DNA of 48,031 nt from Candidatus Aenigmatarchaeota archaeon. GTDB taxonomy: Archaea; Aenigmatarchaeota; Aenigmatarchaeia; GW2011-AR5. Made by a program: the position numbers and the translations under genes. The DNA lies in NCBI GenBank assembly GCA_018304585.1, contig JAGVVY010000002.1, forward strand, positions 1 through 48,031, given 5' to 3'. Position 1 is the stretch's first letter. Each line of letters starts with the position of its first letter. The notes below the pieces were generated by a model. It saw only the letters and a program-made list of their open reading frames with translations, was not told where the DNA came from and made no database searches. Shown piece by piece: positions 25,300 through 45,090 of the stretch.

Positions 25300-26468
25300 T
25301 TTTTAACTCTTCTACTTCCTGATTCACCACGCAGATATTATGGCAAAGTATCTTCAACAGAACCTCGTTCAATTGCGCTGTTTCCGTTTTGCTTCGCAGG
25401 CTGCCACCGAACTTGCTCTTTATCATGTGGAATGTCGTTTCCACGTTGCTTCGTTTGTGGTAGTGCTGGGAAAACTCCTCGTGCCTGTACAGGAAGTAGT
25501 GGTATAGCCTCTTCCATATCCTCGGCTTGAAGCCATCCGCGTTGTTGTTCTTCTTGAAGGGTATGAACGGCACGGCGCCGAGTTCCTCCGCCAGCCTCAG
25601 GTTCTTCAGCGACAGGTAAGCCTTGTCTGCCGACTTCCATCAGTTCAGGAAAATGTTTTCCGTCATTGCCATAACCGTCCGACATCACAAGGCTCGTCAC
25701 CACGTTGGTCTTGACGCCGACCATCACGTGCGCCTTGAACCATACGCGCTTTGTCTTGTCGCTCCCATGCCTGAAGTCATACCATCGCCCGAACCGGCTC
25801 GTGGAAAAGCCGGAGGAGTCCATGGCGAACTGCGTCTCCACGCTCCTGAGCGGGAGCGATGATTTCTCCACGAGTTCCATGAGAACGGGCGTCACGTCCT
25901 TTCTCTGCATGAAATGACCCACGGAAGCGAAGGACGGGGCTTTCCCGATGTGTCCATCCTCTTTCGCTTCCCGCAGGTATGTCATGAACCTTCTGAGGGA
26001 GAACGTGGAATAAACCTTCAGGGCGGACGCAAAGGTCATGTCCCGCATGGACAGCATTGGCCTGCCGGAGGCTTGTTCTGGCTCTGGAATATAACCGCAA
26101 AGATCGCCGAGAAGGTTCATGAAGTTCTCCTTCTCGTTCGCCTGCGCCTTGTCGTAAGCCGGCCAATTCTGCGGATATGAAAGCCTGATGCTTTTAGTCA
26201 CCGTCAGGTTGCCGTCCTTGTCGACTTCCCGCCGGAGCGTGAACTCGACGGCATAAATATGCTTGCACTTTTCCTTGAAGAATTCGTAGTCCGGACACGT
26301 GCATTTTGGCTCGCTCCTGAAGCCCTCGAAGACCACCCTATAGTAGATGTGCCTTGTCTGGGACGGCACGTGCCAGCCGTCCAGAGCCTTCTTCAGCCTG
26401 CTCTTCTGGGCTATTATCGCCCCTCTCATTACCCTTCTTTCCATCTGATATTTTTCCATACTGTACAC
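25289..26468 (-). pseudogene. SWIM-DDE transposase, frameshifted (copy 1)
   Basis: N-terminal two thirds in one frame: a SWIM zinc motif (CTCPDYEFFKEKCKH), then the first DDE Asp in FAMDSSGFSTSRFGRW. After about 25640 the frame shifts; the remainder (FIPFKKNNNADGF, then YHKRSNVETTFHMIKSKF) carries the IS4-superfamily Y(2)R(3)E(6)K signature. Together they cover roughly 390 aa. The related remnant at 34337-35581 shares the whole architecture. I see no terminal inverted repeats at either side, so the element's limits are unknown. Confidence 0.82.
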
Positions 26469-26725: not shown

Positions 26726-28258
26726 ATGACGGACAGGCTCACTCCATTACAGAGAAGTTACTGTATGTCAAAAATAAAGGGTAAAGATACGGGACTTGAA
26801 CTCAGATTCAGGCAATATCTTCTCTCAAGGGGTATGAAGGGGTTTGTTACAAATGCATGCCTTCCCGGGAAACCAGACATATTTTTTCGCGGCAGGAAAA
26901 CCGCGGTTTTTATAGACGGCTGTTATTGGCACAAATGCCCGGAATGTTTCAAACTCCCGAAAACCAACGGGACTTTCTGGAAATCGAAACTAGACAAGAA
27001 CACACGCAGGGACAAAAAGATAACTTTTCTATTGAAAAAAAAAGGCTTCTCGGTTGTCCGGTTATGGGAACATCAGATAGAAAACGACAGAAAGGCATGC
27101 ATGGAGAAAATAAAAGAAGCGCTGGAGAAAGCGAACGCCAGAAAACCGCAAATGGAGAATAAAAAAGGCATAATAGCGGCAGACATATTTTGCGGGGCTG
27201 GAGGCCTGACGCGCGGGCTTCTTGATGCCGATATAAGAGTCATGAAAGGATACGACACGGACGTGCGTGTAAAGGATACATACGAGAAAAACAACGGGGG
27301 TGTCATGTTTTATCCGCATGATGTGAGAAAAATAACAAAGAAAAGTATCCTAAAAAATATGGACAGGGAAAATTATCATTTTCTTCTTGCTGGATGCGCC
27401 CCATGCCAGCCGTTTTCAAACATAAACAGACAGGAAAAAAAGAGGGACGGAAGGAAGCCGTTACTTTTGGAATTCGGGAGACTTGTGAAGGAGACGTATC
27501 CAGATTTTGTTTTCATAGAGAACGTTCCTGGACTTATGAGCCGGAAAGGCGAGAGGTTTTTCACGGAATTTCTGAACATTCTTGACAATGAAGGGTATTA
27601 CTATGATTACGAAACAGTCAACATGAAGGACTACGGGATTCCGCAGAACCGGCAACGGCTTGTTCTTCTCGCGTCAAAATACGGAAGAATAGACGTGCCT
27701 GAAAGGACGCACGGTCTCCCGGGGTCGGGAAGGAAACCGTATGTGCCTATAGACGGTATAATAAAAAAATACCCGAGGATTGCCGCCGGTGAAAAACACC
27801 CGAAAATACCGAACCATGAAACACGGTCACTTTCGGAAATAAATCTCGAGCGCCTAAGATTCACGAAAAGAAACGGCGGGTCTAGAACGGATCTGCCTGA
27901 GCATCTCAGACTCAAATGCCATGAGAAACACGGCGGACATAGTGATGTTTACGGCAGAATGAAATTCGGCACAGTCTCACCGGCACTTACATGCAAATGT
28001 ACAAGCATATCCAACGGACGATTCGGGCATCCCACGCAACTGAGAGGGATATCAGTCAGGGAAGCCGCAGCTTTACAGACGTTTAAAGATACATATATAT
28101 TTTATGGATTACTTACAGAAACGACGAAATGGGTGGGAAATTCTGTTCCCGTGAAATTTGGTAGAATTATGGGAAACGGTTTCGGAGCCCATATAAAGAA
28201 AATAGAGGGTAATCTGAATGAAATACACAACAGAGCAACAGGAAGCCATAAATCATAG
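26726..28258 (+). CDS. Vsr endonuclease fused to DNA cytosine-5 methyltransferase
   Basis: 510 aa, two enzymes in one chain. Residues 1-120 are a Vsr-type mismatch nicking domain: MSKIKGKDTGLELRFRQYL, LPGKPDIFF with the metal Asp, AVFIDGCYWHKCPECFKLP with zinc ligands, FWKSKLDKNTRRD, and VVRLWEHQI. Residues 147-500 are a C5 methyltransferase: motif I ADIFCGAGGLTRG, motif IV AGCAPCQPFSN with the catalytic Cys, motif VI FIENVPGL, motif VIII QNRQRLVLLA, motif X WVGNSVPVKFG. Vsr normally is a separate protein repairing T:G mismatches made by 5mC deamination; the fusion links modification and repair. The 3' end overlaps the helicase gene by 41 bases. Confidence 0.93.
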   Translation: MTDRLTPLQRSYCMSKIKGKDTGLELRFRQYLLSRGMKGFVTNACLPGKPDIFFRGRKTAVFIDGCYWHKCPECFKLPKTNGTFWKSKLDKNTRRDKKITFLLKKKGFSVVRLWEHQIENDRKACMEKIKEALEKANARKPQMENKKGIIAADIFCGAGGLTRGLLDADIRVMKGYDTDVRVKDTYEKNNGGVMFYPHDVRKITKKSILKNMDRENYHFLLAGCAPCQPFSNINRQEKKRDGRKPLLLEFGRLVKETYPDFVFIENVPGLMSRKGERFFTEFLNILDNEGYYYDYETVNMKDYGIPQNRQRLVLLASKYGRIDVPERTHGLPGSGRKPYVPIDGIIKKYPRIAAGEKHPKIPNHETRSLSEINLERLRFTKRNGGSRTDLPEHLRLKCHEKHGGHSDVYGRMKFGTVSPALTCKCTSISNGRFGHPTQLRGISVREAAALQTFKDTYIFYGLLTETTKWVGNSVPVKFGRIMGNGFGAHIKKIEGNLNEIHNRATGSHKS

Positions 28259-30968
28259 AAACGGCAATCTGAAAATAATAGCTTGTGCTGGTTCTGGAAA
28301 GACTACTGTCATGTCGGAAATGATAGCAAACCTCGTGGCAAATGGCGAAGACAGAAATAAGATCGTGGCATTTACCTTCACAGAGAAGGCCGCACATTCA
28401 CTTAAACTCAGGATAAGGGAAGCGCTAAACGTCAAGTGTCCTGACGCACCATATCTCGGCGGCATGTATATAGGTACAATACACGCTTTTGCGCTTCAGA
28501 AGCTGAAAGATCTTGTCCCACGGTTCAGAAATTATGAGGTGCTGAATGAAGTTACAAGAGTCATATGGCTGTCAAAAAAATATATGGAACTTAATATTGA
28601 AAGTCTAGGAGGGGACAGACGTTATTTCGATCGTGTACAACAGTTTCTTAACACGGCTGACATAGTCAGGGACAATGAAATATCCGACGAATCTCTGGAC
28701 AAAATACCTACCTTTAAAGAAGTCTATTACGACTATCTCAAGCTTCTTAGCGAAGACAGGTATCTGGACTACTCTGGTATATTATTCGAGTTCGTAAAAC
28801 TTCTTGACACGAATCTGCAAATCCAGAAAGACGTCCAGAAAAATGTGAAACATCTGGTCGTGGACGAGTATCAGGATGTAAACCACATACAGGAAAAACT
28901 CATAAGCCTGATAGCGAATCCTGGAACAAACGTGTGTGTAGTCGGAGACGACGACCAGTCAATATTTGAATTTCAGGGGGCGGAAGTAAGAAATATAATC
29001 GACTTCGAGAAAAAATACCCCGAAGTAAAAATAATAAAACTGGAAAAAAACTACAGATGCCCAGCCGAGATAATAGAAGCGGCTGGCAACCTGATACGGA
29101 GGAACAGAGGCAGGATTGAAAAGAGTATTCTACCTGGAGATAAAGACGGTAAAATTATACGTTCGGAGAAAGGAGATGTATATAAAGTCGAATTTGACGA
29201 TATTCAAAATGAGGTTAATTTTGTAATCGGAAAAATAAAGGAATTGAGAGGATGCTTGTTCGAGGAGGATGGTGAAAAGCGCGGTTTAGATTACGGTGAT
29301 ATGGCTATAATTGTCCGGACACGTAAGTCCGCACAGCGTTTCATAGAACTCTTCAGACAGGCGAGCATACCCTTTACGCTTAAGGGCACAGGAGGGCTTT
29401 TCCAGCGACTGGAAATAGAGTTTGTCAGATACATTTTTTGCTACCTGGCGGATAGAGCTGCAGAGTGGAGCCAGCCTGATGTTTCACTTGCCGATATAGA
29501 GAAGCTTTTCAATGGACTTGGTTGGTCGCATATAGATTGGGTGGTTCTTGAACAGGAGATAGATGATCTAAAGCGTGAAATATTATCAATCGGATCTCAG
29601 AACCCCGATCCAGGTAAACGAAGAATATTCCTCCAAGACTATTTTTACAAGCTGGCGGAAATGCTCGGTTTGGAGGGAACAAATTTTCCTAATGAAGTTA
29701 TGTATGATTTTGGAAGGTTGAGCACCCTTGTTTCAGAATTTGAAACGATACACGGCTGGATAAATCATTACTATTTTCAACGGTTTGTGGACTTTATGAA
29801 CGGATATGCACAAGACCGGACAGATGAGGGCGGGTTAGAAGACCCTACGCATCAAAACTCCATAAATATACTTACTGTTCATCAGGCGAAGGGTCTGGAA
29901 TTTCCAGTAGTCTTCATACCAGATCTTTCGAAAAGAAGATTTCCATCTCAAAGACGGAATATGAAACCAAGAACACATATAACAGATACAGTATTCGACC
30001 TCCAGTCTTACTGTTCTGGAGACGAGGGCGAGAGACGTCTTTTTTATGTAGCTTCCACACGGACAAAAAAATTTCTTTTCATAACGAGATCAAGAGTAAG
30101 CGACACTGGTACGGAGGCTGCAATGTCGAATTATTTTATAGAATTCGATCATGACATAATCCAAAGAAGAAATGTTCCTGACCCCACAGAAAGGGAAAAG
30201 GGTGTGCCACAAGCCAAACCTGATATGGATCTTCTCCCCACGTCATTCACAGACTTGAGGCAATACATCGTATGCCCTTACAGATATCAATTACAACAAC
30301 TAATGGGGTTCAAACCCATTCTAAATCCGGCATACGGTTACGGACTTCAGGTTCATAATCTACTCAATCACCTGCATAAACGTTATGGTAATGAAATACC
30401 TCCTTTGGAAGAGGTGGAGGCACTTGTGGAAAATGACTTCTTTCTCCGATTCACACGGGACAAACCATTTGAGAACATGAAAAACAAAGCCAAGGAAATC
30501 CTAAGCACATACATCAAACAATATGGCGGCGAGTTTCCTTTAAATTTGGAGACTGAAAAACCATTTGAAATGGTTATGGGAGGTGCGCTCATATCAGGCC
30601 AAATAGACCTTATCCAGAAGATCGACCCAGAATCGAAGGAAGTGAAGGAAGTAAGCATACTTGATTATAAAACGGAAAAGGAAAAACGGGAGGATCCGGA
30701 TGCCAAGGATCTTATGCGTCTGCAGCTACGTCTGTATGCAATAGCAGGGGGTAAAGCGCTTGGTTTGGATCCAAAAACAGCAAAAATCCACTATTTAACA
30801 GAAGACGTCAGGGATGAAGTGGACGTGTCCAAAGAGAAGCTAGACGAAACAAAGGAAAAGCTTTTTCGGACAGTGGAAGGAATAAAGCAAGGAAACTTCA
30901 CACCATGTCCAGGCCAGCAATGCGCCAGTTGTGACATAAAAAGAGTATGCCATGCAAAAAGAGCCTGA
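28218..30968 (+). CDS. UvrD-family helicase with C-terminal PD-(D/E)XK nuclease
   Basis: 916 aa. SF1 helicase motifs: Q-motif TTEQQEAINH, Walker A ACAGSGKTTVMSEM, GTIHAFALQKL, LVVDEYQDVNHIQEKL (Walker B), VVGDDDQSIFEFQGA, NYRCPAEI, TVHQAKGLEFPVVFIP, and RRLFYVASTRTKK. The last 250 residues form a RecB/AddB/Cas4-like nuclease: GLQVHNLLNHLH, GQIDLIQ (Asp), SILDYKTEK (Asp and Lys), with Cys in YIVCPYRYQL and a final CPGQQCASCDIKRVC cluster likely holding Fe-S. It overlaps the Vsr-methyltransferase gene, so the two are co-translated; a role as the restriction arm is inferred. Confidence 0.9.
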   Translation: MKYTTEQQEAINHRNGNLKIIACAGSGKTTVMSEMIANLVANGEDRNKIVAFTFTEKAAHSLKLRIREALNVKCPDAPYLGGMYIGTIHAFALQKLKDLVPRFRNYEVLNEVTRVIWLSKKYMELNIESLGGDRRYFDRVQQFLNTADIVRDNEISDESLDKIPTFKEVYYDYLKLLSEDRYLDYSGILFEFVKLLDTNLQIQKDVQKNVKHLVVDEYQDVNHIQEKLISLIANPGTNVCVVGDDDQSIFEFQGAEVRNIIDFEKKYPEVKIIKLEKNYRCPAEIIEAAGNLIRRNRGRIEKSILPGDKDGKIIRSEKGDVYKVEFDDIQNEVNFVIGKIKELRGCLFEEDGEKRGLDYGDMAIIVRTRKSAQRFIELFRQASIPFTLKGTGGLFQRLEIEFVRYIFCYLADRAAEWSQPDVSLADIEKLFNGLGWSHIDWVVLEQEIDDLKREILSIGSQNPDPGKRRIFLQDYFYKLAEMLGLEGTNFPNEVMYDFGRLSTLVSEFETIHGWINHYYFQRFVDFMNGYAQDRTDEGGLEDPTHQNSINILTVHQAKGLEFPVVFIPDLSKRRFPSQRRNMKPRTHITDTVFDLQSYCSGDEGERRLFYVASTRTKKFLFITRSRVSDTGTEAAMSNYFIEFDHDIIQRRNVPDPTEREKGVPQAKPDMDLLPTSFTDLRQYIVCPYRYQLQQLMGFKPILNPAYGYGLQVHNLLNHLHKRYGNEIPPLEEVEALVENDFFLRFTRDKPFENMKNKAKEILSTYIKQYGGEFPLNLETEKPFEMVMGGALISGQIDLIQKIDPESKEVKEVSILDYKTEKEKREDPDAKDLMRLQLRLYAIAGGKALGLDPKTAKIHYLTEDVRDEVDVSKEKLDETKEKLFRTVEGIKQGNFTPCPGQQCASCDIKRVCHAKRA

Positions 30969-34336: not shown

Positions 34337-35581
34337 TCACCCAACTTTAGGTTCAGTTTCTTTACTTTCGGTGCAGAAATCAGGCTTGATTCCGAGTTCA
34401 TGCATTTCCTGAATAACGACACAGATGTTATGGCAAAGGACTTTTAACAGAACTTCGTTAACCTGTGCCGTATGGTTCTTGCTTCTCACCGAGTCTCCGA
34501 ATTTAGACTTAATCATGTGGAATACAGTTTCCACGTTTGAACGCTTATGGTATTGCTGTAGGAATTCTTCACGGTTGAACATGAAGTAGTGATACATTTT
34601 GCCCCAAAGATTCGAGCCTCTTTGTTTTCCTGTGGCATTGCTCTTGAAAGGTATGAATGCCGTGCCGCCACAGTTGGCTACAGCTTCTATATTTTCTCTT
34701 GACGAATAAGCTTTGTCGGCAGAGACTTCATTTATTGTGAAGTTCTGTGCAGTCTTCTCAACAAGCTCACCGAATTCTTTACTGTCATGAGAGTATGCTT
34801 GTGTTATCTTAACGCCTGTGACGATATGAGTTTTAACGCCGTTCATTAGATGGCACTTCACCCATACTCTGCTGTCAACTTCTTTGCCATACTTGAATGA
34901 AAACCATCTGTCAAAACGTGACGTTCCGAATCCAGAACTGTCTACGGCGAAATCTGTCTCTATAGATTTCAAAGGCAAAGCGGAAACTTCTATCAGTTCA
35001 AGAAGAACGGATGTTGTCTCTTCTTTGTTAAGTATTTTGATACGGCATTGAAATGAGGCTTATGTGCGATGTGGTCTCTCTCCTTTGCTATTTGATAGTT
35101 CATTGCTGTTCTTCTGCTTGACAGAGTAGAATAGACTTTCAGAGCCGAGCAGAATATAACATCACATAGAGGCAGTGACGGTCTGCCGAATTCATAAGGC
35201 TTGTAAATGTCGTCTGTGAGATTGTAAAGAAGCTTCATGAAAAGTTCTGTTTCCTTGGTCGGTGCTTTGTTGTAGGCTGTCCAGTTCTGTGGATAGGTCT
35301 TCTTTACGATATATTCCACAGCGCCATCTGATGAATTTTCTTGTTTATCGTAAATTCAACAGCCCATATATGCTTGCATTTTATTCCGAGTAGCCCTTTG
35401 TTTCAAAGTCTGGGCATTCACAAATCGCTTTGTAGTTTTGATATGTAACAAGGTAAGCACCTGTACATGTCTGCGAAGGCACAACATAACCGCCTTTCTC
35501 TCTTTTCATTATTCGGCATGTCAGTCCTATCTGCATTCCTTTCTTCTGACGGATTTCGTTTGCCTCGTTTTGTGCCCGCAT
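34337..35581 (-). pseudogene. SWIM-DDE transposase, multiply frameshifted (copy 2)
   Basis: Three frame fragments give a protein colinear with copy 1 at 25289: MRAQNEANEIRQKKGM with CECPDFETKG, then (after a shift at about 35383) CKHIWAVEF, then VKKTYPQNWTAYNKAP to about 35000, then FAVDSSGFGTSRFDRWF with the first DDE Asp, VSADKAYSSRENIEAV, and YHKRSNVETVFHMIKSKF with the Y(2)R(3)E(6)K signature. Its C-terminal end lies just inside the left terminal repeat, as expected of an insertion sequence end. At least two frameshifts make it inactive. Sequence is clearly diverged from copy 1, so they are not recent duplicates. Confidence 0.85.
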
Positions 35582-35714: not shown

Positions 35715-35867
35715 GTGGGGAAAATAAAAATTAGCGTAGATGGTTTTGAATGTGAACGCTGCGGTCATAAATGGATCTCAAGGATAAAAGAATCCCCGCG
35801 CGTTTGTCCTAAGTGTCATTCTCCTTATTGGGATAAGCCAAAGCGCGGGAAAAAACAGGTGCTATAA
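35715..35867 (+). CDS. 50-aa zinc-ribbon protein preceding the DISARM methyltransferase
   Basis: GTG 35715 follows an AGGTGA ribosome binding site; the ATG two bases earlier leads to an immediate stop. The product has CERCGHKW and CPKCHSPYWDKP, two CxxC pairs forming a zinc ribbon, and a basic tail. The last base overlaps the ATG of the methyltransferase, so it is translationally coupled as the first gene of the DISARM operon. Small ribbons of this type occur in many archaea; a regulatory role for the operon is inference. Confidence 0.75.
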   Translation: MGKIKISVDGFECERCGHKWISRIKESPRVCPKCHSPYWDKPKRGKKQVL

Positions 35868-36781
35868 TGAAAGCAGTATCATTATTTTCTGGTTGCGGTG
35901 GTACGGATCTTGGTTTGAAAAATGCTGGGATAGATGTCATATTTGCAAATGATATTAGTAGTTGGGCATGTAAAACTTATGAAGAAAATCTGGGAGCAAT
36001 AGTTCATTCAGACATTAAAAAAATAGAATCTTTCCCAAGAGCTGACTTGTTAGTTGGGTGTTTCCCGTGTCAAGGCTTCAGTTTAGCACGAAGAAAAACT
36101 GGACCTGATCCTAGAAATCTTTTGTATTTGGAATTCGAACGCGCGCTTTCTCAAGTCAAGCCAGATTTCTTTGTAACTGAGAATGTGAAAGGACTGATTA
36201 GTCAGAATGGTATAGCGACATTTCAGGACATGCTGCTGAAATTTGGCAGAAGATATGACGTTTCATGGAAAGTTATTAACGCAAAGGATTATGGAGTTCC
36301 TCAGGATAGGGAAAGGGTTTTCATTGTAGGTGTAAAAAAATCTTTGAAGGAAAAATTTGTCTTCCCAGAACCAACACATGGTCCAGGAAAAAAGAAATAC
36401 GTTAACCTCAGAAAATCTATAGGTAACATGCCAAAACCAAAAGAAGACGAAATTTACAATAAAGGCTTCTCATGGCATTATCTTTCAAGAAATAGGAAAA
36501 GAAAATGGGATGATGTGAGTTTTACGATACAAGCTAGCGGTAGGCATGCACCACTTCATCCAAGTGGACCCCAGCCTGTGCATGTCGGAAAAGACAAATT
36601 CATTCTTCCATCTCCGGAAGAGAAGCATAGAAGACTTTCATATAAAGAGTGTGCTGTGATTCAAAGCTTTCCTAGAAGGTTCAAGTTTTATGGGCATTTA
36701 GAAGCAAAATACATGCAAATAGGAAATGCAGTACCACCCAAGATTTCTGAAATGATTGTTAGCGCCATTAAAGAATTATAA
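35867..36781 (+). CDS. drmMII: DNA cytosine-5 methyltransferase (DISARM DrmMII)
   Basis: 304 aa, complete: motif I SLFSGCGGTDLGLKNAG, motif IV VGCFPCQGFSLARRK with the catalytic Cys, motif VI VTENVKGLI, motif VIII PQDRERVFIVGV, motif IX/X SYKECAVIQSFP and MQIGNAVPPK. In class 2 DISARM the host-marking enzyme is a 5mC methyltransferase, and the next four genes are the other members, which assigns this role. The recognition sequence cannot be read from the protein. It is unrelated in detail to the methyltransferase half of the Vsr fusion at 26726. Confidence 0.9.
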   Translation: MKAVSLFSGCGGTDLGLKNAGIDVIFANDISSWACKTYEENLGAIVHSDIKKIESFPRADLLVGCFPCQGFSLARRKTGPDPRNLLYLEFERALSQVKPDFFVTENVKGLISQNGIATFQDMLLKFGRRYDVSWKVINAKDYGVPQDRERVFIVGVKKSLKEKFVFPEPTHGPGKKKYVNLRKSIGNMPKPKEDEIYNKGFSWHYLSRNRKRKWDDVSFTIQASGRHAPLHPSGPQPVHVGKDKFILPSPEEKHRRLSYKECAVIQSFPRRFKFYGHLEAKYMQIGNAVPPKISEMIVSAIKEL

Positions 36782-36804
36782 AGGTAAGTTTTACTATATT
36801 GAAC

Positions 36805-39138
36805 ATGCTAGTGGCACCAAAACTGACTCAAGTAGATTTTCGTTTCGATGGTCGCAAAATAGAGTTTCATAGTATTGAAAAAGATGCGTTAGAATTGGCA
36901 ACACTAACTGCCAATAAAGGATCTAAAATCGCTATTTTTTACCCTAGTGAGACATATGATTGCTTGTTGCCTTTTTGTCTAGAATTACTTTACCAAGGCA
37001 GATTTATGCGTAAAGAAAAGAGATCCGTCATCCTTTTTGCTGGGCGACTCGCTCCGAAACTAAGAGATTTGTACCTGTACCTGAACTATGGACCAGAAAG
37101 TATCGCATCTTCTTTATTCGGAATGTCTTACTTAACAAGACATGGCATCAGCAGTATAAAGCCTGTAGGTCTGAAAAAATTAGTTCCTGATAGATTCATA
37201 ATTTCAAACAACTATTCAGTATTGCCACAACAAAGTCTTGCAAAAGACTTGAATAGCGCAATAATAATTTCACCGTCTCATGGAATGACTTTCAGGATCC
37301 TAAAGGATATAAAATGGTGTGACGAAAATGGCATTGGAAACATAGTTCTGTTTGATAATTTCCCTACCTATAGAAAACTAAAGCTTTACACAAGTCTTGG
37401 TTTTGCAATTTACGGCTGGGAAACATGTGACATAGAATCGCGAACTGACGAAAACAGCAACACCACACCTGTTTCTAATTCTAAGTCATTGAGCACATTT
37501 GGACATTCTTCTCAAATAACTGTAATAGATGCTATTGACCATGAAACAGATAAGCAACTTGAGGGGCTTTCACAAGCAATTGAAAAACTAAGAAAATTCT
37601 CAGATGACGCTGATAATAACCCCACCGAATATATAATTTTCCGGGAGGCTTCATACATACTTCGAAGATTAGAATCCTTAACCGTACCGTTGTATGACTA
37701 CGATCAGTCTGATATTCAAACATTTAGACTAGGGCTAATTGAGAGAATAAACTCAATCATAGAGCTTTGTGATAACATTGGTACGAAGGCTCCTGCTGAA
37801 ATTAATGAAATTAAGGTATATTTGTCTGAAGCAAGATCGCACCTTACGAGCCGAAATCCTAAATTCAGTTGTCTACTCAACGAAATCGGAGAATGTATTA
37901 ACAGAAACGAGAAAGCCATATTATTCCTTGGATCTGATCAAGATAAGTTTGCTTTTCTGAAAGTTTTGGAGAAGAGAAATAGACATATAGCACAGCAAAT
38001 TCCAAATAGCAATATTGTTTTTGAGACGTTGTATTGTAACTATAAAAAATATGTTGGCAAAGATTTTGATAGGGCAATATTTTGCACTTACTTACCGCTA
38101 TCAAGAAATAGACTGATTGATAAAATCCAGGCCAAAGAAAAAAAGATGATTCTCTATACAATAGAAAAAAGGACCTTTAATTTTTTCAATAAATTACGTA
38201 CAAAATTTGAACAGGTTTTTTTCACCGCAGCAGCAAGAGAGGATTTAAGACAATTCTTGATGTCGCCCGATGAATCATACAAACAAAAATCAATAAAATT
38301 TATAGGTGAACTTGAAAAGGATGTTGATGAGTTGAAACATGTTAGTGAGGAGAAACCAACAAGTATAATTTCATTATTTACTGATACGGAAGATTTAGTT
38401 GAACCTGAACCTGTTTTTTATGACAAAGTACATTTAGAGGGCGAAGAAAGTGGGAAAAAATTATTCATAGACGGTATGGCTATTGGATTATATGAAGCTG
38501 GTACACTCTTAACAAAATCTGAAAGAACTGTACAGGTTGTAACAGAATCTGATGAAGTAAGATACAAAAAAGCTGCTGAATTGAAGATCGGTGATCAACT
38601 TTTACTCATTAACAGACAGACAAAAAAGACGCTTAATGAATTAATACTTGAAAAGGCTAACGAATATCCAAAACTTCAGATTATTAAGATGCTTGTCGAC
38701 ATTTGGGTGTCGGAATTAAGAAAAGGTATGAGGACCAATAATGACAGCGATTTAAGCCTTCTTAGAAAACTCCAAGAGTCTGGGTCCAGAATAAAGCATG
38801 ACGGGACGATAAAGCTCTGGTGTGAAGGTTATGTAATTGGTCCCAGAGATCGTGATGATGTTATTAGGATTGCAGATGCGTACAGCAGTGCTTCAATAAG
38901 AGCCAACTATAAAGGAATAAACACATCAATTAAAAATCTTAGAGGTCTTAGACGAAGTATAGTAAGAAGATTGAAAAATGCCCTTGTCGAAGGGGAAATA
39001 GATGAAATTGAAAAACTTGGAGTTAATATTGATGACTTTGAACAGTACGTGGAAATGTTTGAAGTTGCATCTATAGAAAAACGCAATAACATTTCAGTTG
39101 CTAGACTAGATACAGTTGATGGTACTTATGAATTATAA
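36805..39138 (+). CDS. drmE: DISARM protein DrmE (by context)
   Basis: 777 aa from ATG 36805 (a TTG at 36799 would add two). No classic enzymatic motif is obvious; segments such as SKIAIFYPSETYDCLLPFCL, SAIIISPSHGMTF and RAIFCTYLPLSRNRLIDKIQ suggest RecA-like alpha/beta domains in which helicase motifs have decayed. Position between the 5mC methyltransferase and DrmA, and size near 780 aa, match DrmE, the class 2-specific DISARM component of unknown biochemistry. The end overlaps DrmA. The name rests mainly on context. Confidence 0.72.
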   Translation: MLVAPKLTQVDFRFDGRKIEFHSIEKDALELATLTANKGSKIAIFYPSETYDCLLPFCLELLYQGRFMRKEKRSVILFAGRLAPKLRDLYLYLNYGPESIASSLFGMSYLTRHGISSIKPVGLKKLVPDRFIISNNYSVLPQQSLAKDLNSAIIISPSHGMTFRILKDIKWCDENGIGNIVLFDNFPTYRKLKLYTSLGFAIYGWETCDIESRTDENSNTTPVSNSKSLSTFGHSSQITVIDAIDHETDKQLEGLSQAIEKLRKFSDDADNNPTEYIIFREASYILRRLESLTVPLYDYDQSDIQTFRLGLIERINSIIELCDNIGTKAPAEINEIKVYLSEARSHLTSRNPKFSCLLNEIGECINRNEKAILFLGSDQDKFAFLKVLEKRNRHIAQQIPNSNIVFETLYCNYKKYVGKDFDRAIFCTYLPLSRNRLIDKIQAKEKKMILYTIEKRTFNFFNKLRTKFEQVFFTAAAREDLRQFLMSPDESYKQKSIKFIGELEKDVDELKHVSEEKPTSIISLFTDTEDLVEPEPVFYDKVHLEGEESGKKLFIDGMAIGLYEAGTLLTKSERTVQVVTESDEVRYKKAAELKIGDQLLLINRQTKKTLNELILEKANEYPKLQIIKMLVDIWVSELRKGMRTNNDSDLSLLRKLQESGSRIKHDGTIKLWCEGYVIGPRDRDDVIRIADAYSSASIRANYKGINTSIKNLRGLRRSIVRRLKNALVEGEIDEIEKLGVNIDDFEQYVEMFEVASIEKRNNISVARLDTVDGTYEL

Positions 39139-42100
39139 CAGGCAAAAACTTAGAGAAAAGATGATAGATCTGATAATGCAGTCAGTCATATCAGATGCAT
39201 CTGGAGAAGGCAAGCACGTTGTCGATATAAGACCCTCACAAATATTTTTTGTAGGGAATCTTAGTACCAAACCAAGGCTAGGAGAATTACAAAAAGTTGC
39301 GACAAAACTTTCTCCAAACTCCATTGGAATTGAAATATTACTCCCTCTTGATGTGCCAGAAGGCTCTACATTGACAATCTCTCCAAGCGGAGCATTTTAT
39401 TATAGAGTTTTTCCTGACTACAAATCTCAAAAATCATATTCTGACAGACTTTCATCTAAAAAGAGAAAATCTGTGGACTTCATTGAAAGATTCAAGAAAA
39501 GGACCTTCAGCAAAAGTTTCTCTATAGACGTTCAAGATACAATAAGAAAATGCGAAACTGATACAGAAGTTAACTTTCCATTTAATGATTTTTGTAGTGA
39601 CATTTGGAATGAAATAAAACAAGAAAAGGACTTATTTTCACCAATATCAATTGGTAACAAACCACCATCCATCAATATTCCAATTGATGTTATGAAAACT
39701 GAAGCTGATTTCGAAAGTTTTATCAACGGAAGAAAACAAGAATTGGATTGTAACTGGGGGTTTGAAATTAATATAAAGTGTTTCAAAACTGTATCCGGCT
39801 ATAGAATGGTAATTCTGTTTGTAAATAATAAGGATTATATAGAAGACCAAAAGATCAAAAAAAGCATTGAAAATTACATTTTTGAATCAAAAATAAATAT
39901 AAAATCTGTTGTGCCGCTAAAGGCATTCATTTTGGACCAGTTAGAAAAGAACTATAAACATGATAGGACTGTCGAAGCAGCCGGTATAAATTGTAGCTTT
40001 ACAAAACTGTCGACGCATGAAATAGAGACAAACCACGTCCCAATTTTTAGACAACCAAGGCGAGTAGCCCGAAATATGGGTGGAATTAAGTTTAAAGATT
40101 TAAATGAAAGACCTATTCAAGTCTTGAATTCTCTGAAAGCTTCTATGAAATCAAGCTACAACATATTTAGTCAAAAATTTGCGATGAGAGCGAAAACGCA
40201 TGAAGAAAAAGAAGAGTTCGAAAAAGACATGAATCTAATAAAAAATGAAATTGAAAGATTTGAAAATGGCATAGAACATATTAACAAATACAAAGATTCT
40301 TTTCGTGCATTTCAACTAATGAATCAAACTTTTGAAATGTCGGTAAAAGAAAAGTATGACTCATGGTACCCGTTCCAAATAGTTTTCATAACGTCGCTTG
40401 TGCCAGATGTCATAGCAGAACGGCACCCTGAAGCTAAAAATTTCAGAAATCATGCTGATCTTTTATATTTTCCAACTGGTGGCGGTAAGACAGAAGCATT
40501 TTTAGGGTTAGCCATATTTCAGGCCTTTTATGATAGGATATCTGGAAAGAAGTTTGGAGTCTCAGTGATTACAAAATTTCCTCTCAGAATGCTTTCACTA
40601 GACCAAATGCGCAGGATAGCAGAAATTTTTGCCAAGGCTGAAACCATAAGAAAATCCGAGCCGGACATAGGCAAAGAAGAATATCATCCATTCAGTGTTG
40701 GGTATTTCGTAGGTGCAAAAGTTACTCCTAACAAACTTATCGAATGGGATTATACACAAGGTCCTCGCGGCGGCTACAAAAATATACTTGAAGATTTGGA
40801 ATCCGATAAGGAAAAACTCTCAAAATTTCAATTGATTTCTAAATGCCCCTTTTGCGAAAGCAACGTAGACATGGTAGCCGATAAAGCGAGAATTAGACTT
40901 GCTCATGTATGCATAAATAAAAATTGCGTTGGAGAGCTTCCAATTTACATAACCGATACTGAGATATTCAGATATGTACCTACGTTTATTGTTGGTACAC
41001 TTGACAAAATGGCGTCGATTGGCCAACAAATAAACTTTAGAAATATACTTGGTGCAATAAGCCATGAGTGTGAGTTACATGGCTTCAGTAGCTCAATTGT
41101 TTGTACTGAAGATAAATCGGGATGCAAATCTGAACTAAAACCGGTTCCTAAATACGACTACTCACCCTCATTACTAATTCAAGATGAAATGCATCTTGTT
41201 AGAGAAACATTAGGGTCATTTGACTCTCATTATGAGACTGCAATAGCACACCTAATAAGTGTGTTTTCGGACAAAAACAAAAGAATTAAAATTGTATGTG
41301 CAACTGCTACATTGTCTGACAAAACTTATAATGACCATGTAAATCACTTGTATCTTCGAGATGCCATAAAATTTCCTGCTGCACTAGAAATTTTTACGGA
41401 TGAAAGCAATGACACGGCAAGAATGATAGTTGGGTTGATGCCTCATTCAAAAACTCTGATCAATAGCATGGAAGAAATCATAATTAGTATGTCAAACACA
41501 GTCCAGACTTGGGTAAATGACACGTCTACATTAAAATCACTTTTAAGCGAAGATTATCCAGATGAAACCATTCAAAAAGAGCTGAGAGATTTTTGGACTA
41601 TACTTACTTATCATATTAAGAAAAACGATGCTTACCAACTTTCTAGGTCTGTGTCAACAAGAATAAACGAAACTCTCCAGAATGAACTGCAATTAAAGAC
41701 CCTTCGACGCAAGACACTAACTGGCGACGTGAATTTTAAAGAAATAAAACAAGTAATGAATAAAGTCAAAGAAGAAAAAAACTATGAGAACGCCTTGGAT
41801 TTGATAATTGCAACTAGCATAATATCCCACGGCGTGGATATAGACGCACTTAATCTAATGACTTTTATGGGCATGCCAGGAAACAATGCAGAATATATTC
41901 AAGCTTTAAGCAGAGTTGGCAGACAGCGCACAGGTTTGGTCTTCGCTGTTTTTAATCCAACACGAGAAAAAGATAGAAGCTATTTTAAACACTTCGAAAA
42001 GTTCCATCAACTGTCAGATTTACTTATAGAACCAACACCTATACAGCGATGGTCAAAGAAAGTAGTTGAGAAAACCTGCCCTGGAATTTTTTGTGGGGCG

Positions 42101-42505
42101 ATATACAGTTACTTTGATTTTATTGTTAATAGTGCACAAAAATTAATTAAGCCAAATAAGCTTAATTTTCCAAGAAACTTTAAAGAAGTTTTAAGATCTG
42201 GAGTAATAAAAGATGAAGAGATAATAGAATTTATCAAGAAATGCTATACTGATGGGACGGTGAATTCACCACCTGATTTTATAGAAAAAGTTAAAAGTAC
42301 AGCATCCGAATGTGTAAATTCTATAATAAGACTTGACATTAGCACAATACCACCACACCATATTATTGGAACATTCCTTTCTCCTCAGCCTCTGCAAAAT
42401 TTGAGAGACGTTGAAGAAGGTGTTTTTGTAGCACTTACAGAAAAGTCTATCAGTATTCTTAGAAAAGGCATAATAAAGGAAACTGACTTTACGGAGGAAG
42501 ACTAA
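39128..42505 (+). CDS. drmA: DISARM helicase DrmA
   Basis: 1,125 aa from ATG 39128; ATG 39119 and TTG 39116 are alternative starts. SF2 helicase: Walker A YFPTGGGKTEAFLGLA (about residue 455), Ib VITKFPLRMLSLDQMRR, Walker B SLLIQDEMHLVRETLGSF (DEMH box), motif III CATATLS, and the C-terminal domain IIATSIISHGVDIDALNL plus YIQALSRVGRQRTGLVF. A zinc-like CPFCESN...CINKNCVG insertion lies between. DrmA with DrmB forms the core DNA-sensing and translocating complex of DISARM. Ends immediately before the DrmB ATG. Confidence 0.92.
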   Translation: MNYNRQKLREKMIDLIMQSVISDASGEGKHVVDIRPSQIFFVGNLSTKPRLGELQKVATKLSPNSIGIEILLPLDVPEGSTLTISPSGAFYYRVFPDYKSQKSYSDRLSSKKRKSVDFIERFKKRTFSKSFSIDVQDTIRKCETDTEVNFPFNDFCSDIWNEIKQEKDLFSPISIGNKPPSINIPIDVMKTEADFESFINGRKQELDCNWGFEINIKCFKTVSGYRMVILFVNNKDYIEDQKIKKSIENYIFESKINIKSVVPLKAFILDQLEKNYKHDRTVEAAGINCSFTKLSTHEIETNHVPIFRQPRRVARNMGGIKFKDLNERPIQVLNSLKASMKSSYNIFSQKFAMRAKTHEEKEEFEKDMNLIKNEIERFENGIEHINKYKDSFRAFQLMNQTFEMSVKEKYDSWYPFQIVFITSLVPDVIAERHPEAKNFRNHADLLYFPTGGGKTEAFLGLAIFQAFYDRISGKKFGVSVITKFPLRMLSLDQMRRIAEIFAKAETIRKSEPDIGKEEYHPFSVGYFVGAKVTPNKLIEWDYTQGPRGGYKNILEDLESDKEKLSKFQLISKCPFCESNVDMVADKARIRLAHVCINKNCVGELPIYITDTEIFRYVPTFIVGTLDKMASIGQQINFRNILGAISHECELHGFSSSIVCTEDKSGCKSELKPVPKYDYSPSLLIQDEMHLVRETLGSFDSHYETAIAHLISVFSDKNKRIKIVCATATLSDKTYNDHVNHLYLRDAIKFPAALEIFTDESNDTARMIVGLMPHSKTLINSMEEIIISMSNTVQTWVNDTSTLKSLLSEDYPDETIQKELRDFWTILTYHIKKNDAYQLSRSVSTRINETLQNELQLKTLRRKTLTGDVNFKEIKQVMNKVKEEKNYENALDLIIATSIISHGVDIDALNLMTFMGMPGNNAEYIQALSRVGRQRTGLVFAVFNPTREKDRSYFKHFEKFHQLSDLLIEPTPIQRWSKKVVEKTCPGIFCGAIYSYFDFIVNSAQKLIKPNKLNFPRNFKEVLRSGVIKDEEIIEFIKKCYTDGTVNSPPDFIEKVKSTASECVNSIIRLDISTIPPHHIIGTFLSPQPLQNLRDVEEGVFVALTEKSISILRKGIIKETDFTEED

Positions 42506-44338
42506 ATGAAATTCGAGGATCGAGTACCACGCGGTAAAAGCCAAGTGCTTTTTAATTTTCTGCCAGGGGCTTTGATTGACTTCCCAACGACTAATATTGT
42601 TGCAAAAGTTGCTGCGTGGCAATCAGATAAAATAGAATCAAAATCCAACAAACGTATACTAGACAAGATTTATTCGCTTATGACGGAAAAATACATGGCC
42701 GTGGACGATAGATTCCCAAAAAAGCCCGACGTAAGTCAATTTAGATTTGGCGAGCCGATATTAGTCGAGTCTGAAATATTTCCACTGGTTTTCAAATCGC
42801 AAACTACGAAAAAGGTTTATTTTTTCTATAATTTAGATGATCTTGATAGATTTTTGGCTAGCTGGAACAAATCTGAACAACTTGTACAAATTGACCTAAT
42901 TTTTATCGACACCCATGGAGATGTGGACAGATTACATCCAACACAAGATGCTAGAAAAAAGAACATAAAGCTAGAGAAGATCGGTAAAAGCCAAGCAGGG
43001 CTTCATTGGATTGATATGGACACCGATGAGGACCTTGGCCAAATATGGCACTTTATGAACGGAAAAAGAATAAGTGTCGCAACACCAGTAAGAGCTAAGA
43101 TAACTTATTTGCCTCAAATAATTACCCTTGTTAATATTCGAGATTATCTTGATTTTGAACAAAGAGAAAAAGAAATATTGATGATCGCAATTATATCGAA
43201 ATACTTAGATCATTTGAATGAATTTTCTGACATGACATTTGACAAAATAGTAAGAGAGGTAAGATATACCAGGGAAATGGGAAGTAATGATATAGAAAAG
43301 CTACTGGCTAAGCTTGGAGTTGATAAAAATAATTTACCTGATGATAAGAAAAAAGAAATTGTAAAGTTTTCTCAGTCTTCAGGAAATATAGGCAGCAGAA
43401 TAAAAGCTGTGTTGGACCAAGACAAAGAATTTATCCGCGGTTTGGACGTTGCAAATATTTACGACAGAGTTTATGAGTACCTTACAACTATAGAATCTCG
43501 TGGAAGAGAAAATTTAGATGAAGCAATAGATTCAGCATTGCAAGACAAAAGCAAATTCATACAGTTTAAAAAACGCATGGATTTAATAGGCGTTAAAAAA
43601 ATTACATATGTTGAAGACATACCAATTCAAAATGTTGCATATGGTTACGTAAGAGGTAGCTTCAATACAAAAGAGACAATACTACGTGCATTTCCTTTTG
43701 ACAGATTCGATAACAAGCGCATTCCTATTTATCTTACTAATACAACAACCGAGGGACTTGTATTAGAACTTGACAGAACGAAAATACTGAAGTGGCTTAA
43801 TAATAATGGCATCGTAGAAACTAAAAACATGAGTGATGAAGAGGAGAAGTTGTGGTTCCTCAATAATATCGACAGTTCAAAAATATCAACCTTCTCAGGA
43901 ACTAAAGAAGCTGGCGTTACAAGAGAAGTATTTCATTTAATACACAGTATTTCTCATGCATTGATCAAAAAAATCCCTGAACAGGCTGGAATAGGTCTAG
44001 ACTCTATTGGCGAAATCATATTCCCCAACATACCTGCAATACTTATTTTTTCGAGAGAGAGCGGAGACTTTCGTATTGGTGCATTGCATGACTTATTCCG
44101 TAATCGATTATATCCATGGGTCGATGTTACAATAAAAGACATAGGTAAATGTGTTTATGACCCTGTCTGCTATCACGACATTGGTTCATGTCATAGCTGC
44201 TTATACTTAAATGAGATTTCTTGTAGTAATTTCAATCAAGACTTATCAAGGCACTACCTAATTGGAAAAGCTTTCAATGGTAACTTATCAGCTTTTTGGA
44301 AAGATGCCATAAATCAAATAGATAGGGGTGTTTTATGA
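42506..44338 (+). CDS. drmB: DISARM protein DrmB (DUF1998)
   Basis: 610 aa. The C-terminal DUF1998 pattern is clear: FHLIHSISHALIKKIPEQAG, GEIIFPNIPAILIFSRESG, and the Cys cluster KCVYDPVCYHDIGSCHSCLY, followed by CSNF. The N-terminal half carries no named domain. Starts one base after the DrmA stop with a GGAGG ribosome binding site; its end overlaps DrmC by 4 bases. DrmB partners DrmA. Confidence 0.92.
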   Translation: MKFEDRVPRGKSQVLFNFLPGALIDFPTTNIVAKVAAWQSDKIESKSNKRILDKIYSLMTEKYMAVDDRFPKKPDVSQFRFGEPILVESEIFPLVFKSQTTKKVYFFYNLDDLDRFLASWNKSEQLVQIDLIFIDTHGDVDRLHPTQDARKKNIKLEKIGKSQAGLHWIDMDTDEDLGQIWHFMNGKRISVATPVRAKITYLPQIITLVNIRDYLDFEQREKEILMIAIISKYLDHLNEFSDMTFDKIVREVRYTREMGSNDIEKLLAKLGVDKNNLPDDKKKEIVKFSQSSGNIGSRIKAVLDQDKEFIRGLDVANIYDRVYEYLTTIESRGRENLDEAIDSALQDKSKFIQFKKRMDLIGVKKITYVEDIPIQNVAYGYVRGSFNTKETILRAFPFDRFDNKRIPIYLTNTTTEGLVLELDRTKILKWLNNNGIVETKNMSDEEEKLWFLNNIDSSKISTFSGTKEAGVTREVFHLIHSISHALIKKIPEQAGIGLDSIGEIIFPNIPAILIFSRESGDFRIGALHDLFRNRLYPWVDVTIKDIGKCVYDPVCYHDIGSCHSCLYLNEISCSNFNQDLSRHYLIGKAFNGNLSAFWKDAINQIDRGVL

Positions 44339-45090
44339 TGAAGCAATCAAGGATAGATGTGATAGTTAATGCTCTAAAAGTTCTTGATAAAAAGGGCGAA
44401 GTTTCTGGAAGGGATATACTGCGAACACTGGAAAAATTGTGTGATGTGAATGAGCTTCATCTTTATGCAATGTTGAATGAACAGATAATAAAATCTATAA
44501 AAGTTTCCAGAGACATAAAGGACTATAAATTCAAAATCCTAAAGGATGGACTTTCTAACAAGCAAAAAATTTCAAATATTTTTGAAGATCTAATAGCTGA
44601 TGATTTCGTGCTTATTGCTAGTTACCCACCCGGAAAGATCGAAGAAAAATATAAGGTTGAACAATTATATCCTAGATTATGCAGACTAATTTTATCAGCA
44701 AAAAGAAGTCTCGTACTTATCAACCCTTATTTTGATAAAAAGGGTCTTGATAAATTATTACCCTACATAGATGGTGCTGCTAAAAATGGCGTAAAAATAA
44801 GATTAATTTGTAGAAAAGGGAAGGAACCTGACGCCTTAATAGGAGCAATAAAAAGCAGAATTGGAGATAATTTAGAGTTGAAAGAGTTTGGAGGGTTGGG
44901 ATATTTTCTTCATGCAAAGTGCATAATTGCAGATGATAAGTTGGCTTACATAGGCAGCGCCAATATAACTGGAACTTCTTTGGGCTCAAATCTTGAACTT
45001 GGAGTTCTTTTCACTGGCAGCAAAGTAAAACAGTTATCACAATTCCTAGACAGGGTACTAAGCTTCGAGGGCGACGATGAAGATGGTTGA
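44335..45090 (+). CDS. drmC: DISARM phospholipase D-like protein DrmC
   Basis: 251 aa. One PLD-type HxK(x4)D motif, LHAKCIIADDKLAYIGSANI, near residues 196-215 with the following GS/N residues, as in single-motif PLD nucleases that dimerise. The N-terminal 90 residues are helical (ILRTLEKLCDVNELHLYAML). ATG 44335 overlaps the DrmB stop, preceded by GGGGTG. DrmC is the PLD member of the DISARM core and is dispensable in some studied systems. Between its stop and the element's right end (45091-45201) I see no gene. Confidence 0.92.
   Translation: MMKQSRIDVIVNALKVLDKKGEVSGRDILRTLEKLCDVNELHLYAMLNEQIIKSIKVSRDIKDYKFKILKDGLSNKQKISNIFEDLIADDFVLIASYPPGKIEEKYKVEQLYPRLCRLILSAKRSLVLINPYFDKKGLDKLLPYIDGAAKNGVKIRLICRKGKEPDALIGAIKSRIGDNLELKEFGGLGYFLHAKCIIADDKLAYIGSANITGTSLGSNLELGVLFTGSKVKQLSQFLDRVLSFEGDDEDG

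What the first reader, a model, noticed from the sequence alone, without database searches (positions are those of the whole stretch)
26726..30968. Vsr-methyltransferase fusion overlapping a UvrD-Cas4-like helicase-nuclease: possible restriction module
Seen: one 510-aa chain holds a complete Vsr domain (GKPDIFF, DGCYWHKCPEC, WEHQI) and a complete C5 methyltransferase, with the stop 41 bases inside a helicase gene that ends in a PD-(D/E)XK nuclease with a Cys cluster. Vsr and Dcm are usually separate genes. The fusion marks a self-repairing methylator; the co-translated helicase-nuclease could be the anti-phage effector sparing methylated DNA. No conventional restriction endonuclease gene is nearby. 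The functional pairing is inference.
Basis: partly seen in the sequence, partly recalled or inferred. Interest (0 to 1): 0.78.

Follow-up and report, generated by a model that had tools for sequence, protein, structure and literature searches.

The report
Fused methylase-repair enzyme beside helicase-nuclease
A small archaeon carries an acquired gene pair that probably marks its own DNA, repairs the damage this marking causes and helps destroy foreign DNA; the gene trio is a published type of predicted defence module, and the unusual part is that two of its enzymes are joined into one protein.

Summary
Window 26726-28258 (+) encodes one 510-aa chain: a complete Vsr mismatch endonuclease followed by a complete C5-cytosine methyltransferase. 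Its stop lies inside a 916-aa UvrD helicase fused to a Cas4-like PD-(D/E)XK nuclease with four cysteines (28218-30968; 41-nt overlap).

The pairing is real and already known. Hudaiberdiev et al. 2017 (PMC5704561) described UvrD-Cas4 genes beside dcm, several with vsr, and predicted defence. Here 9 of 38 sampled UvrD-Cas4 loci carry a C5 methyltransferase and 5 of those a Vsr. The closest relative (L174, 47-58% identity) has the same three genes in the same order, with Vsr and methyltransferase separate. So the fusion is a derived joining of neighbouring genes.

The fusion is rare. Among 80 genomic methyltransferase loci there was one other, in reverse order, inside a DISARM locus. The junction also rests on a single reading-frame state that only reads can confirm.

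Most likely the fusion marks self DNA and repairs 5mC-deamination mismatches, while UvrD-Cas4 digests DNA. Whether UvrD-Cas4 is the methylation-sensitive effector or an aid to restriction enzymes is open.

The parts
26726..27130 (+). Vsr mismatch endonuclease domain (aa 1-135) of the fused protein; active-site set E25, D51, D64, H69, D96
27131..27175 (+). linker (aa 136-150) holding internal Met143 (ATG 27152-27154); in relative L174 this is where Vsr stops and the methyltransferase starts
   Evidence: pLDDT about 75
27176..28258 (+). C5-cytosine DNA methyltransferase domain (aa 151-510)
   Evidence: PF00145 179.5 bits, TIGR00675 132.6 bits, M.HaeIII match
28218..30968 (+). UvrD-Cas4 type helicase-nuclease, 916 aa; helicase aa 4-625, PD-(D/E)XK nuclease aa 675-912, Cys 686/902/905/911; start ATG preceded by GAGGG, 41-nt overlap with the fusion gene
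25338..26468 (-). frame-broken IS transposase (SWIM + DDE) directly upstream; left edge of the acquired segment
35867..45090 (+). separate DISARM system: DrmMII 35867-36781, DrmE 36799-39138, DrmA 39116-42505, DrmB 42506-44338, DrmC 44335-45090
   Evidence: not part of the fusion/helicase pair

Best explanation
This is a horizontally acquired Dcm-Vsr-UvrD-Cas4 module of the kind predicted in 2017 to be a defence system, in which the vsr and methyltransferase genes have become one gene. The methyltransferase domain marks a short sequence with 5mC on host DNA. The attached Vsr domain nicks T:G mismatches left by deamination of those 5mC, so that recognition sites are repaired and stay methylatable. 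The co-translated UvrD-Cas4 protein is an AdnAB/AddAB-like motor-nuclease that unwinds and degrades DNA and is used against unmarked foreign DNA. Shown by sequence: domain content, intact catalytic residues, overlapping-gene geometry, recurrence of the trio in other lineages, foreign composition and absence from relatives. Inferred: 5mC marking (about 0.85), mismatch repair by Vsr (about 0.8), UvrD-Cas4 acting on foreign DNA (about 0.6), and UvrD-Cas4 acting as the effector without a cognate REase (about 0.3).
For: Domains and active sites. Both halves of the fusion fold with confidence (mean pLDDT 87.8). UvrD-Cas4 resembles AddA, AdnA/AdnB and RecB in fold, and AdnAB in sequence including the nuclease. 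Same gene order Vsr-MTase-UvrD-Cas4 in archaeon L174 (47%, 58%, 56% identity) and in Bacillota L193; MTase-Vsr-UvrD-Cas4 in L184; divergent in Bacteroidota L197 and L200; MTase directly upstream of UvrD-Cas4 in L198, L199, L201, L226, L228, L229. In the UvrD-Cas4 tree the C5-linked members cluster apart from the type III-linked ones (2 changes, 0 of 500 shuffles as low). Absent from 155 other genomes of the phylum. GC 41-44% against 50-56% over most of the left half of the window, with an IS fragment next to it. Prior description: PMC5704561.
Against: No activity data. MTases linked to UvrD-Cas4 do not form one clade (at least 4 changes forced), so the MTase-helicase pairing is not strict coevolution. 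Several C5-linked loci have additional REase candidates: MspI and MvaI/BcnI families, HNH, GHKL/MORC-like and nicking-type REase_II. UvrD-Cas4 is also found beside type III Mod/Res. Both fit a general ancillary helicase-nuclease equally well. The fusion occurs in one assembly only.
Confidence: 0.66

Rival explanations
1. UvrD-Cas4 is an ancillary end-processing enzyme, not the effector. Cutting is done by other restriction enzymes, and UvrD-Cas4 degrades the cut foreign DNA or processes ends; in this locus the cognate REase has been lost and the MTase-Vsr remains as an orphan.
For: UvrD-Cas4 sits next to complete RM systems of several types: C5 MTase with MspI (L036) or MvaI/BcnI (L037, L227), type III Mod/Res (L038, L177, L179, L180, L182, L185), HNH or other REase candidates (L192, L197, L200). 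An IS fragment abuts the 5' side of the operon and could mark a deletion. An ancillary role is the suggestion of PMC5704561.
Against: L174 and the two-gene MTase-UvrD-Cas4 loci (L198, L201, L226, L228, L229) show no recognisable cognate REase either, so absence is recurrent rather than a local loss. Unknown ORFs nearby could still be unrecognised REases.
Confidence: 0.4
2. A self-contained very-short-patch repair cassette: Vsr nicks T:G mismatches at the methylated motif, and UvrD-Cas4 unwinds and trims the nicked strand so that a polymerase can resynthesise it, replacing MutL/UvrD help in a host without MutL.
For: Vsr, its MTase and a UvrD-type helicase are co-encoded in the same order in two archaeal genomes. 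No MutL homologue was found in this genome (82% complete). In E. coli MutL works with UvrD at nicks (PMC2292703).
Against: Many MTase-UvrD-Cas4 pairs lack Vsr (L198, L199, L201, L226, L228, L229), and type III-linked UvrD-Cas4 loci mostly have none. The genomes of L174, L193, L184 and L197 do have MutL.
Confidence: 0.15
3. The fused frame is a sequencing or assembly error or a recent frameshift; the true genes are separate overlapping vsr and methyltransferase genes as in L174.
For: In L174 Vsr ends one base before the MTase ATG, in a different frame. In the window the ATG (27152) is kept and a TAA lies at 27160 in the frame one base off, so a single missing base between about 27126 and 27160 would create the fusion. 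Same-order fusions were not found elsewhere.
Against: The Vsr frame is right up to its last conserved helix and the MTase frame from motif I; long ORFs of the window (1249, 1129, 932, 916 aa) are intact, so indel errors are not common here. The linker has only short homopolymers (4 and 6 A).
Confidence: 0.2
4. Addiction role: the Vsr domain damages DNA lacking the cognate 5mC, so loss of the module is punished, and fusing it to the MTase guarantees balanced expression.
For: In Caulobacter, VsrA causes an SOS response and fitness loss when the 5mC MTase ScmA is deleted (PMC12907096).
Against: A fused Vsr is lost together with its MTase, so it cannot punish loss of the MTase gene alone; no data for this protein.
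Confidence: 0.08

Closest known systems
UvrD-Cas4 / Dcm / Vsr predicted defence loci (Hudaiberdiev et al. 2017, PMC5704561)
   Same: UvrD helicase fused to a pfam12705 Cas4-like nuclease, encoded next to a C5 methyltransferase and a Vsr
   Different: Described there as separate dcm and vsr genes; here Vsr and MTase are one chain
Vsr-MTase-UvrD-Cas4 operon in archaeal genome G654 (locus L174)
   Same: Same three genes in the same order, 47/58/56% identity; MTase and UvrD-Cas4 also overlap (4 nt)
   Different: Vsr ends 1 nt before the MTase start; not fused
E. coli Dcm-Vsr and Neisseria Vsr (1cw0, V.NgoAXIII)
   Same: Vsr fold and catalytic set; functional link of Vsr with a 5mC MTase
   Different: Separate proteins, no helicase-nuclease in the unit; this Vsr has D at position 64 as in the Neisseria enzymes
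MTase-Vsr fusion in a DISARM locus (L119, Peptococcaceae BRH_c4b)
   Same: Vsr joined to the C5 MTase of a defence locus
   Different: Reverse domain order (MTase then Vsr); partners are DrmE, DrmA and DrmB, and no UvrD-Cas4 was found in that genome
AdnAB / AddAB helicase-nucleases
   Same: UvrD-type motor with a C-terminal RecB/Cas4-like nuclease
   Different: Heterodimeric housekeeping end-resection enzymes; here a single gene in a defence-type context

Membership tests
Vsr endonuclease (TIGR00632) | score above the family cut-off over the full model | tested here: met
   113.7 bits against 97.85, model 1-118 of 119
Vsr endonuclease (TIGR00632) | active-site residues E25, D51, H/D64, H69, D97 | tested here: met
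   E25, D51, D64, H69, D96 by alignment to 1cw0; residue list and H64D precedent in PMC12907096
Vsr endonuclease (TIGR00632) | nicks T:G mismatches in a methylated motif | not testable with these tools
   needs purified protein
C5-cytosine DNA methyltransferase | SAM-binding motif I, PCQ, ENV, QxRxR and C-terminal motifs | tested here: met
UvrD-Cas4 fusion family (PMC5704561) | SF1 UvrD helicase fused to a pfam12705 nuclease with a Cys cluster | tested here: met
   PF00580, PF13361, PF12705; C686/C902/C905/C911 invariant in A2
UvrD-Cas4 fusion family (PMC5704561) | monophyly with the family of that paper | tested here: inconclusive
   groups with other UvrD-Cas4 proteins gathered here (40-row tree); the paper's own tree was not rebuilt
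Dcm-Vsr-UvrD-Cas4 predicted defence module | C5 MTase (and Vsr) encoded beside UvrD-Cas4 | tested here: met
Dcm-Vsr-UvrD-Cas4 predicted defence module | protection against phage or foreign DNA | not testable with these tools
Type II restriction-modification | cognate restriction endonuclease next to the MTase | tested here: not met
   no REase match among the ORFs tested beside the pair; short unknown ORFs remain
DISARM | DrmA and DrmB encoded with the MTase | tested here: not met
   the fusion/helicase pair has neither; a separate DISARM with its own DrmMII lies at 35867-45090
Gabija | GajA OLD-type nuclease next to a GajB UvrD helicase | tested here: not met
   the helicase part scores on GajB models (221 bits) but there is no GajA neighbour, and a C-terminal nuclease not covered by GajB is present

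The most novel reading that the evidence does not exclude
C5 methyltransferase plus UvrD-Cas4, with or without Vsr, is a self-sufficient restriction system without a conventional endonuclease: the helicase-nuclease itself destroys DNA lacking the 5mC mark, and in this archaeon the marking and repair enzymes have been joined into one self-maintaining methylator.
Probability: 0.27. Interest if true: 0.72.

Novelty: new variant of a known kind. Interest (0 to 1): 0.42.

Why it matters
If the C5-MTase/UvrD-Cas4 pair restricts DNA without a classical endonuclease, it would add a helicase-nuclease type to RM systems and give a function to a family predicted in 2017 and, as far as the papers searched here show, not yet tested. 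The Vsr fusion would show repair of the methylator's own mutagenic by-product built into a defence enzyme; a second, independent fusion in a DISARM locus suggests that this coupling may be favoured. Even if the role is ancillary, the trio (window and L174) is a compact cassette for testing it.

Tried and rejected
Artefact of ORF calling: rejected, since both domains are full length, in one frame, and the helicase starts with a good ribosome-binding site. Fusion as a conserved family: rejected. In 80 genomic and 80 viral-contig MTase loci, and in the best 40 plasmid and 20 phage matches as listed, the only other fusion seen was L119 in reverse order. The plasmid hit that spans both domains in one aligned piece and has annotation (H50) proved to be two genes; H51 was separated by ORF calling. 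The fusion MTase as the DISARM methylase: rejected, since DISARM has its own DrmMII and its operon starts about 4.9 kb after the helicase ends, with HisS and an IS fragment between. Gabija: rejected. Composite transposon of the two IS fragments: unlikely, since HisS lies between them and they are only 46% identical. Viral-contig search for close relatives of the fusion: one weak hit. A search of the order of the L174 genome (140 genomes) for more members of its subclade found none close.
Full report
WHAT IS THERE. The window is contig C29 of an 825-kb archaeal genome bin, 82.5% complete (archaeal by its mevalonate-pathway genes, read from the ORFs). ORF 26726-28258 (+) encodes 510 aa with Vsr at aa 1-116 (TIGR00632, 113.7 bits, cut-off 97.85) and a C5 methyltransferase at aa 152-480 (PF00145, 179.5 bits). 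ORF 28218-30968 (+) encodes 916 aa with UvrD N- and C-terminal domains and a PDDEXK_1 nuclease at aa 675-912. The two genes overlap by 41 nt and the second has a GAGGG eight bases before its ATG, so coupled translation is likely (inference). The Vsr active-site set maps to E25, D51, D64, H69, D96; D in place of H64 is found in functional Neisseria Vsr enzymes (PMC12907096). All C5 MTase motifs checked are present. The helicase keeps its ATPase motifs, and the nuclease its D797, D816, K818 and Q836 positions and Cys 686/902/905/911, all invariant in an alignment with three distant relatives. AlphaFold models give both fusion domains as confident folds (mean pLDDT 87.8, linker about 75) and UvrD-Cas4 as a UvrD motor plus a RecB-like nuclease (mean 78), with AddA, AdnA/AdnB and RecB among the nearest solved structures. 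By sequence profile AdnAB is the nearest, including the nuclease region.

SURROUNDINGS. A frame-broken IS transposase lies directly upstream (25338-26468, -) and a second fragment, 46% identical, at 34337-35319 (-). GC is 41-44% over the pair against 50-56% over most of the left half of the window. No other genome among 155 of the phylum has the helicase-nuclease at E <= 1e-40, and none of those examined has a Vsr-MTase fusion; their Vsr and MTase genes are separate. The pair is therefore most likely acquired. Further right, at 35867-45090 in DNA of 33-38% GC, lies a DISARM system with its own C5 methylase: DrmMII, DrmE, DrmA, DrmB, DrmC. The HisS gene and the second IS fragment separate it from the pair, so I treat the two as neighbours, not one system.

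IS THE PAIRING MORE THAN CHANCE? UvrD-Cas4 was sought with a profile of the helicase C-terminus plus nuclease in four phyla: 8 of 399 genomes (Bacillota), 16 of 325 (phylum of Methanophagales archaeon L106), 2 of 329 (Pseudomonadota) and 18 of 327 (Bacteroidota). In 38 loci fetched with flanks, 9 have a C5 MTase beside UvrD-Cas4 (L174, L184, L192, L193, L197-L201) and 5 of these also a Vsr; 5 have type III Mod and Res. Of 8 full-length or near-full-length UvrD-Cas4 genes on IMG/VR contigs, 5 have a C5 MTase nearby; of 3 on plasmids, 2 do and the third has type III genes. In the tree of 40 UvrD-Cas4 proteins, ten C5-linked ones cluster (with two others) apart from the type III-linked clade; the label needs 2 changes, and 0 of 500 shuffles did as well. 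The counts are of related sequences, and the C5-linked loci amount to about five lineages. The MTases themselves are not one clade (5 changes), so partners have been exchanged.

HOW THE FUSION AROSE. The closest relative of both proteins is L174, an archaeal locus with Vsr (158 aa), MTase (350 aa) and UvrD-Cas4 (918 aa) in the same order, 47, 58 and 56% identical. There the Vsr TGA ends one base before the MTase ATG, in another frame. The nucleotide alignment shows that the window lacks 10 + 6 bases at this point, which removes stop and start and joins the frames. The joined state is fragile: ATG 27152 survives, and a TAA at 27160 lies in the frame one base off, so one missing base in about 35 would be enough to create it. 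Nothing suggests frequent indel errors (long ORFs are intact), but reads were not available. Elsewhere the fusion is rare. Among the 80 nearest MTase loci in genomes 33 have a Vsr gene and one is fused (L119; MTase first, Vsr last); among 80 viral-contig loci 10 have Vsr and none is fused. L119 is itself a DISARM locus (DrmE, DrmA, DrmB upstream) whose methylase carries Vsr, an independent joining of the same two activities.

HOW IT MOST LIKELY WORKS. The MTase domain marks DNA, Vsr repairs T:G mismatches from deaminated 5mC at those sites, and UvrD-Cas4 is a motor-nuclease deployed against foreign DNA. The first two steps follow from the known biochemistry of the families; the third rests on genomic context only. 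Two versions compete. In the ancillary version UvrD-Cas4 digests DNA opened by other restriction enzymes; it fits its presence beside MspI, MvaI/BcnI, HNH and type III enzymes. In the effector version it replaces the endonuclease; it fits the window, L174 and the MTase-UvrD-Cas4 pairs L198, L201, L226, L228 and L229, where no recognisable cognate REase was found (unknown ORFs remain, and L226 has a weak 32-bit match to a type IV enzyme model). A repair-cassette version (UvrD-Cas4 finishing Vsr repair in a host in which no MutL was found) is weaker, because many pairs lack Vsr and hosts of the other trios have MutL. These versions are not fully exclusive, so the confidences given to the best explanation and to the rivals do not add up to one.

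KNOWN OR NEW. The association UvrD-Cas4 with dcm and, in several loci, vsr was published as a predicted defence context by Hudaiberdiev et al. 2017 (PMC5704561), and Vsr with MTases and GHKL/MORC ATPases in RM-like operons by Iyer et al. 2008 (PMC2292703). Searches of the held literature found no experimental test of UvrD-Cas4 with Dcm/Vsr and no description of a Vsr-MTase fusion; that library lacks most subscription papers. The finding is thus a fused variant of a known, untested module. Its value lies in the compact, testable cassette and in the open effector question.

Noticed in passing
window 35867-45090: DISARM-type defence system (DrmMII, DrmE, DrmA, DrmB, DrmC) in a 33-38% GC block of an archaeal genome of about 0.8 Mb.
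   Followed up: partly
L119:3-9425 (Peptococcaceae bacterium BRH_c4b): DISARM locus (DrmE-DrmA-DrmB) whose C5 methylase carries a C-terminal Vsr domain: an independent MTase-Vsr fusion in reverse order.
   Followed up: partly
L178:8789-12892 and L181:9045-13043: UvrD-Cas4 proteins of 1332-1367 aa with an extra N-terminal region of about 310 aa ('VRYFRGRRGE..', looks NERD-like by eye), not beside an RM system recognised here.
   Followed up: no
L222-L229 (IMG/VR contigs): UvrD-Cas4 genes on contigs classed as viral, five of eight with a C5 methyltransferase nearby; the helicase-nuclease travels on mobile elements.
   Followed up: partly
L184:14200-16188, L114:6032-7975, L266:2639-4711, L319:2740-4746: GHKL/MORC-like ATPase genes next to Vsr/C5-MTase pairs (L184 and L114 match PADLOC REase_II models; L266 and L319 read by eye), in line with PMC2292703.
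   Followed up: partly
window 25338-26468 and 34337-35319 (- strand): Two degraded DDE transposases (46% identical to each other), both frame-broken, flanking 26.5-34.3 kb.
   Followed up: partly
L176:4334-7317 and L261: UvrD-Cas4 followed by two HsdM-like genes (by eye), suggesting a type I RM context as well.
   Followed up: no
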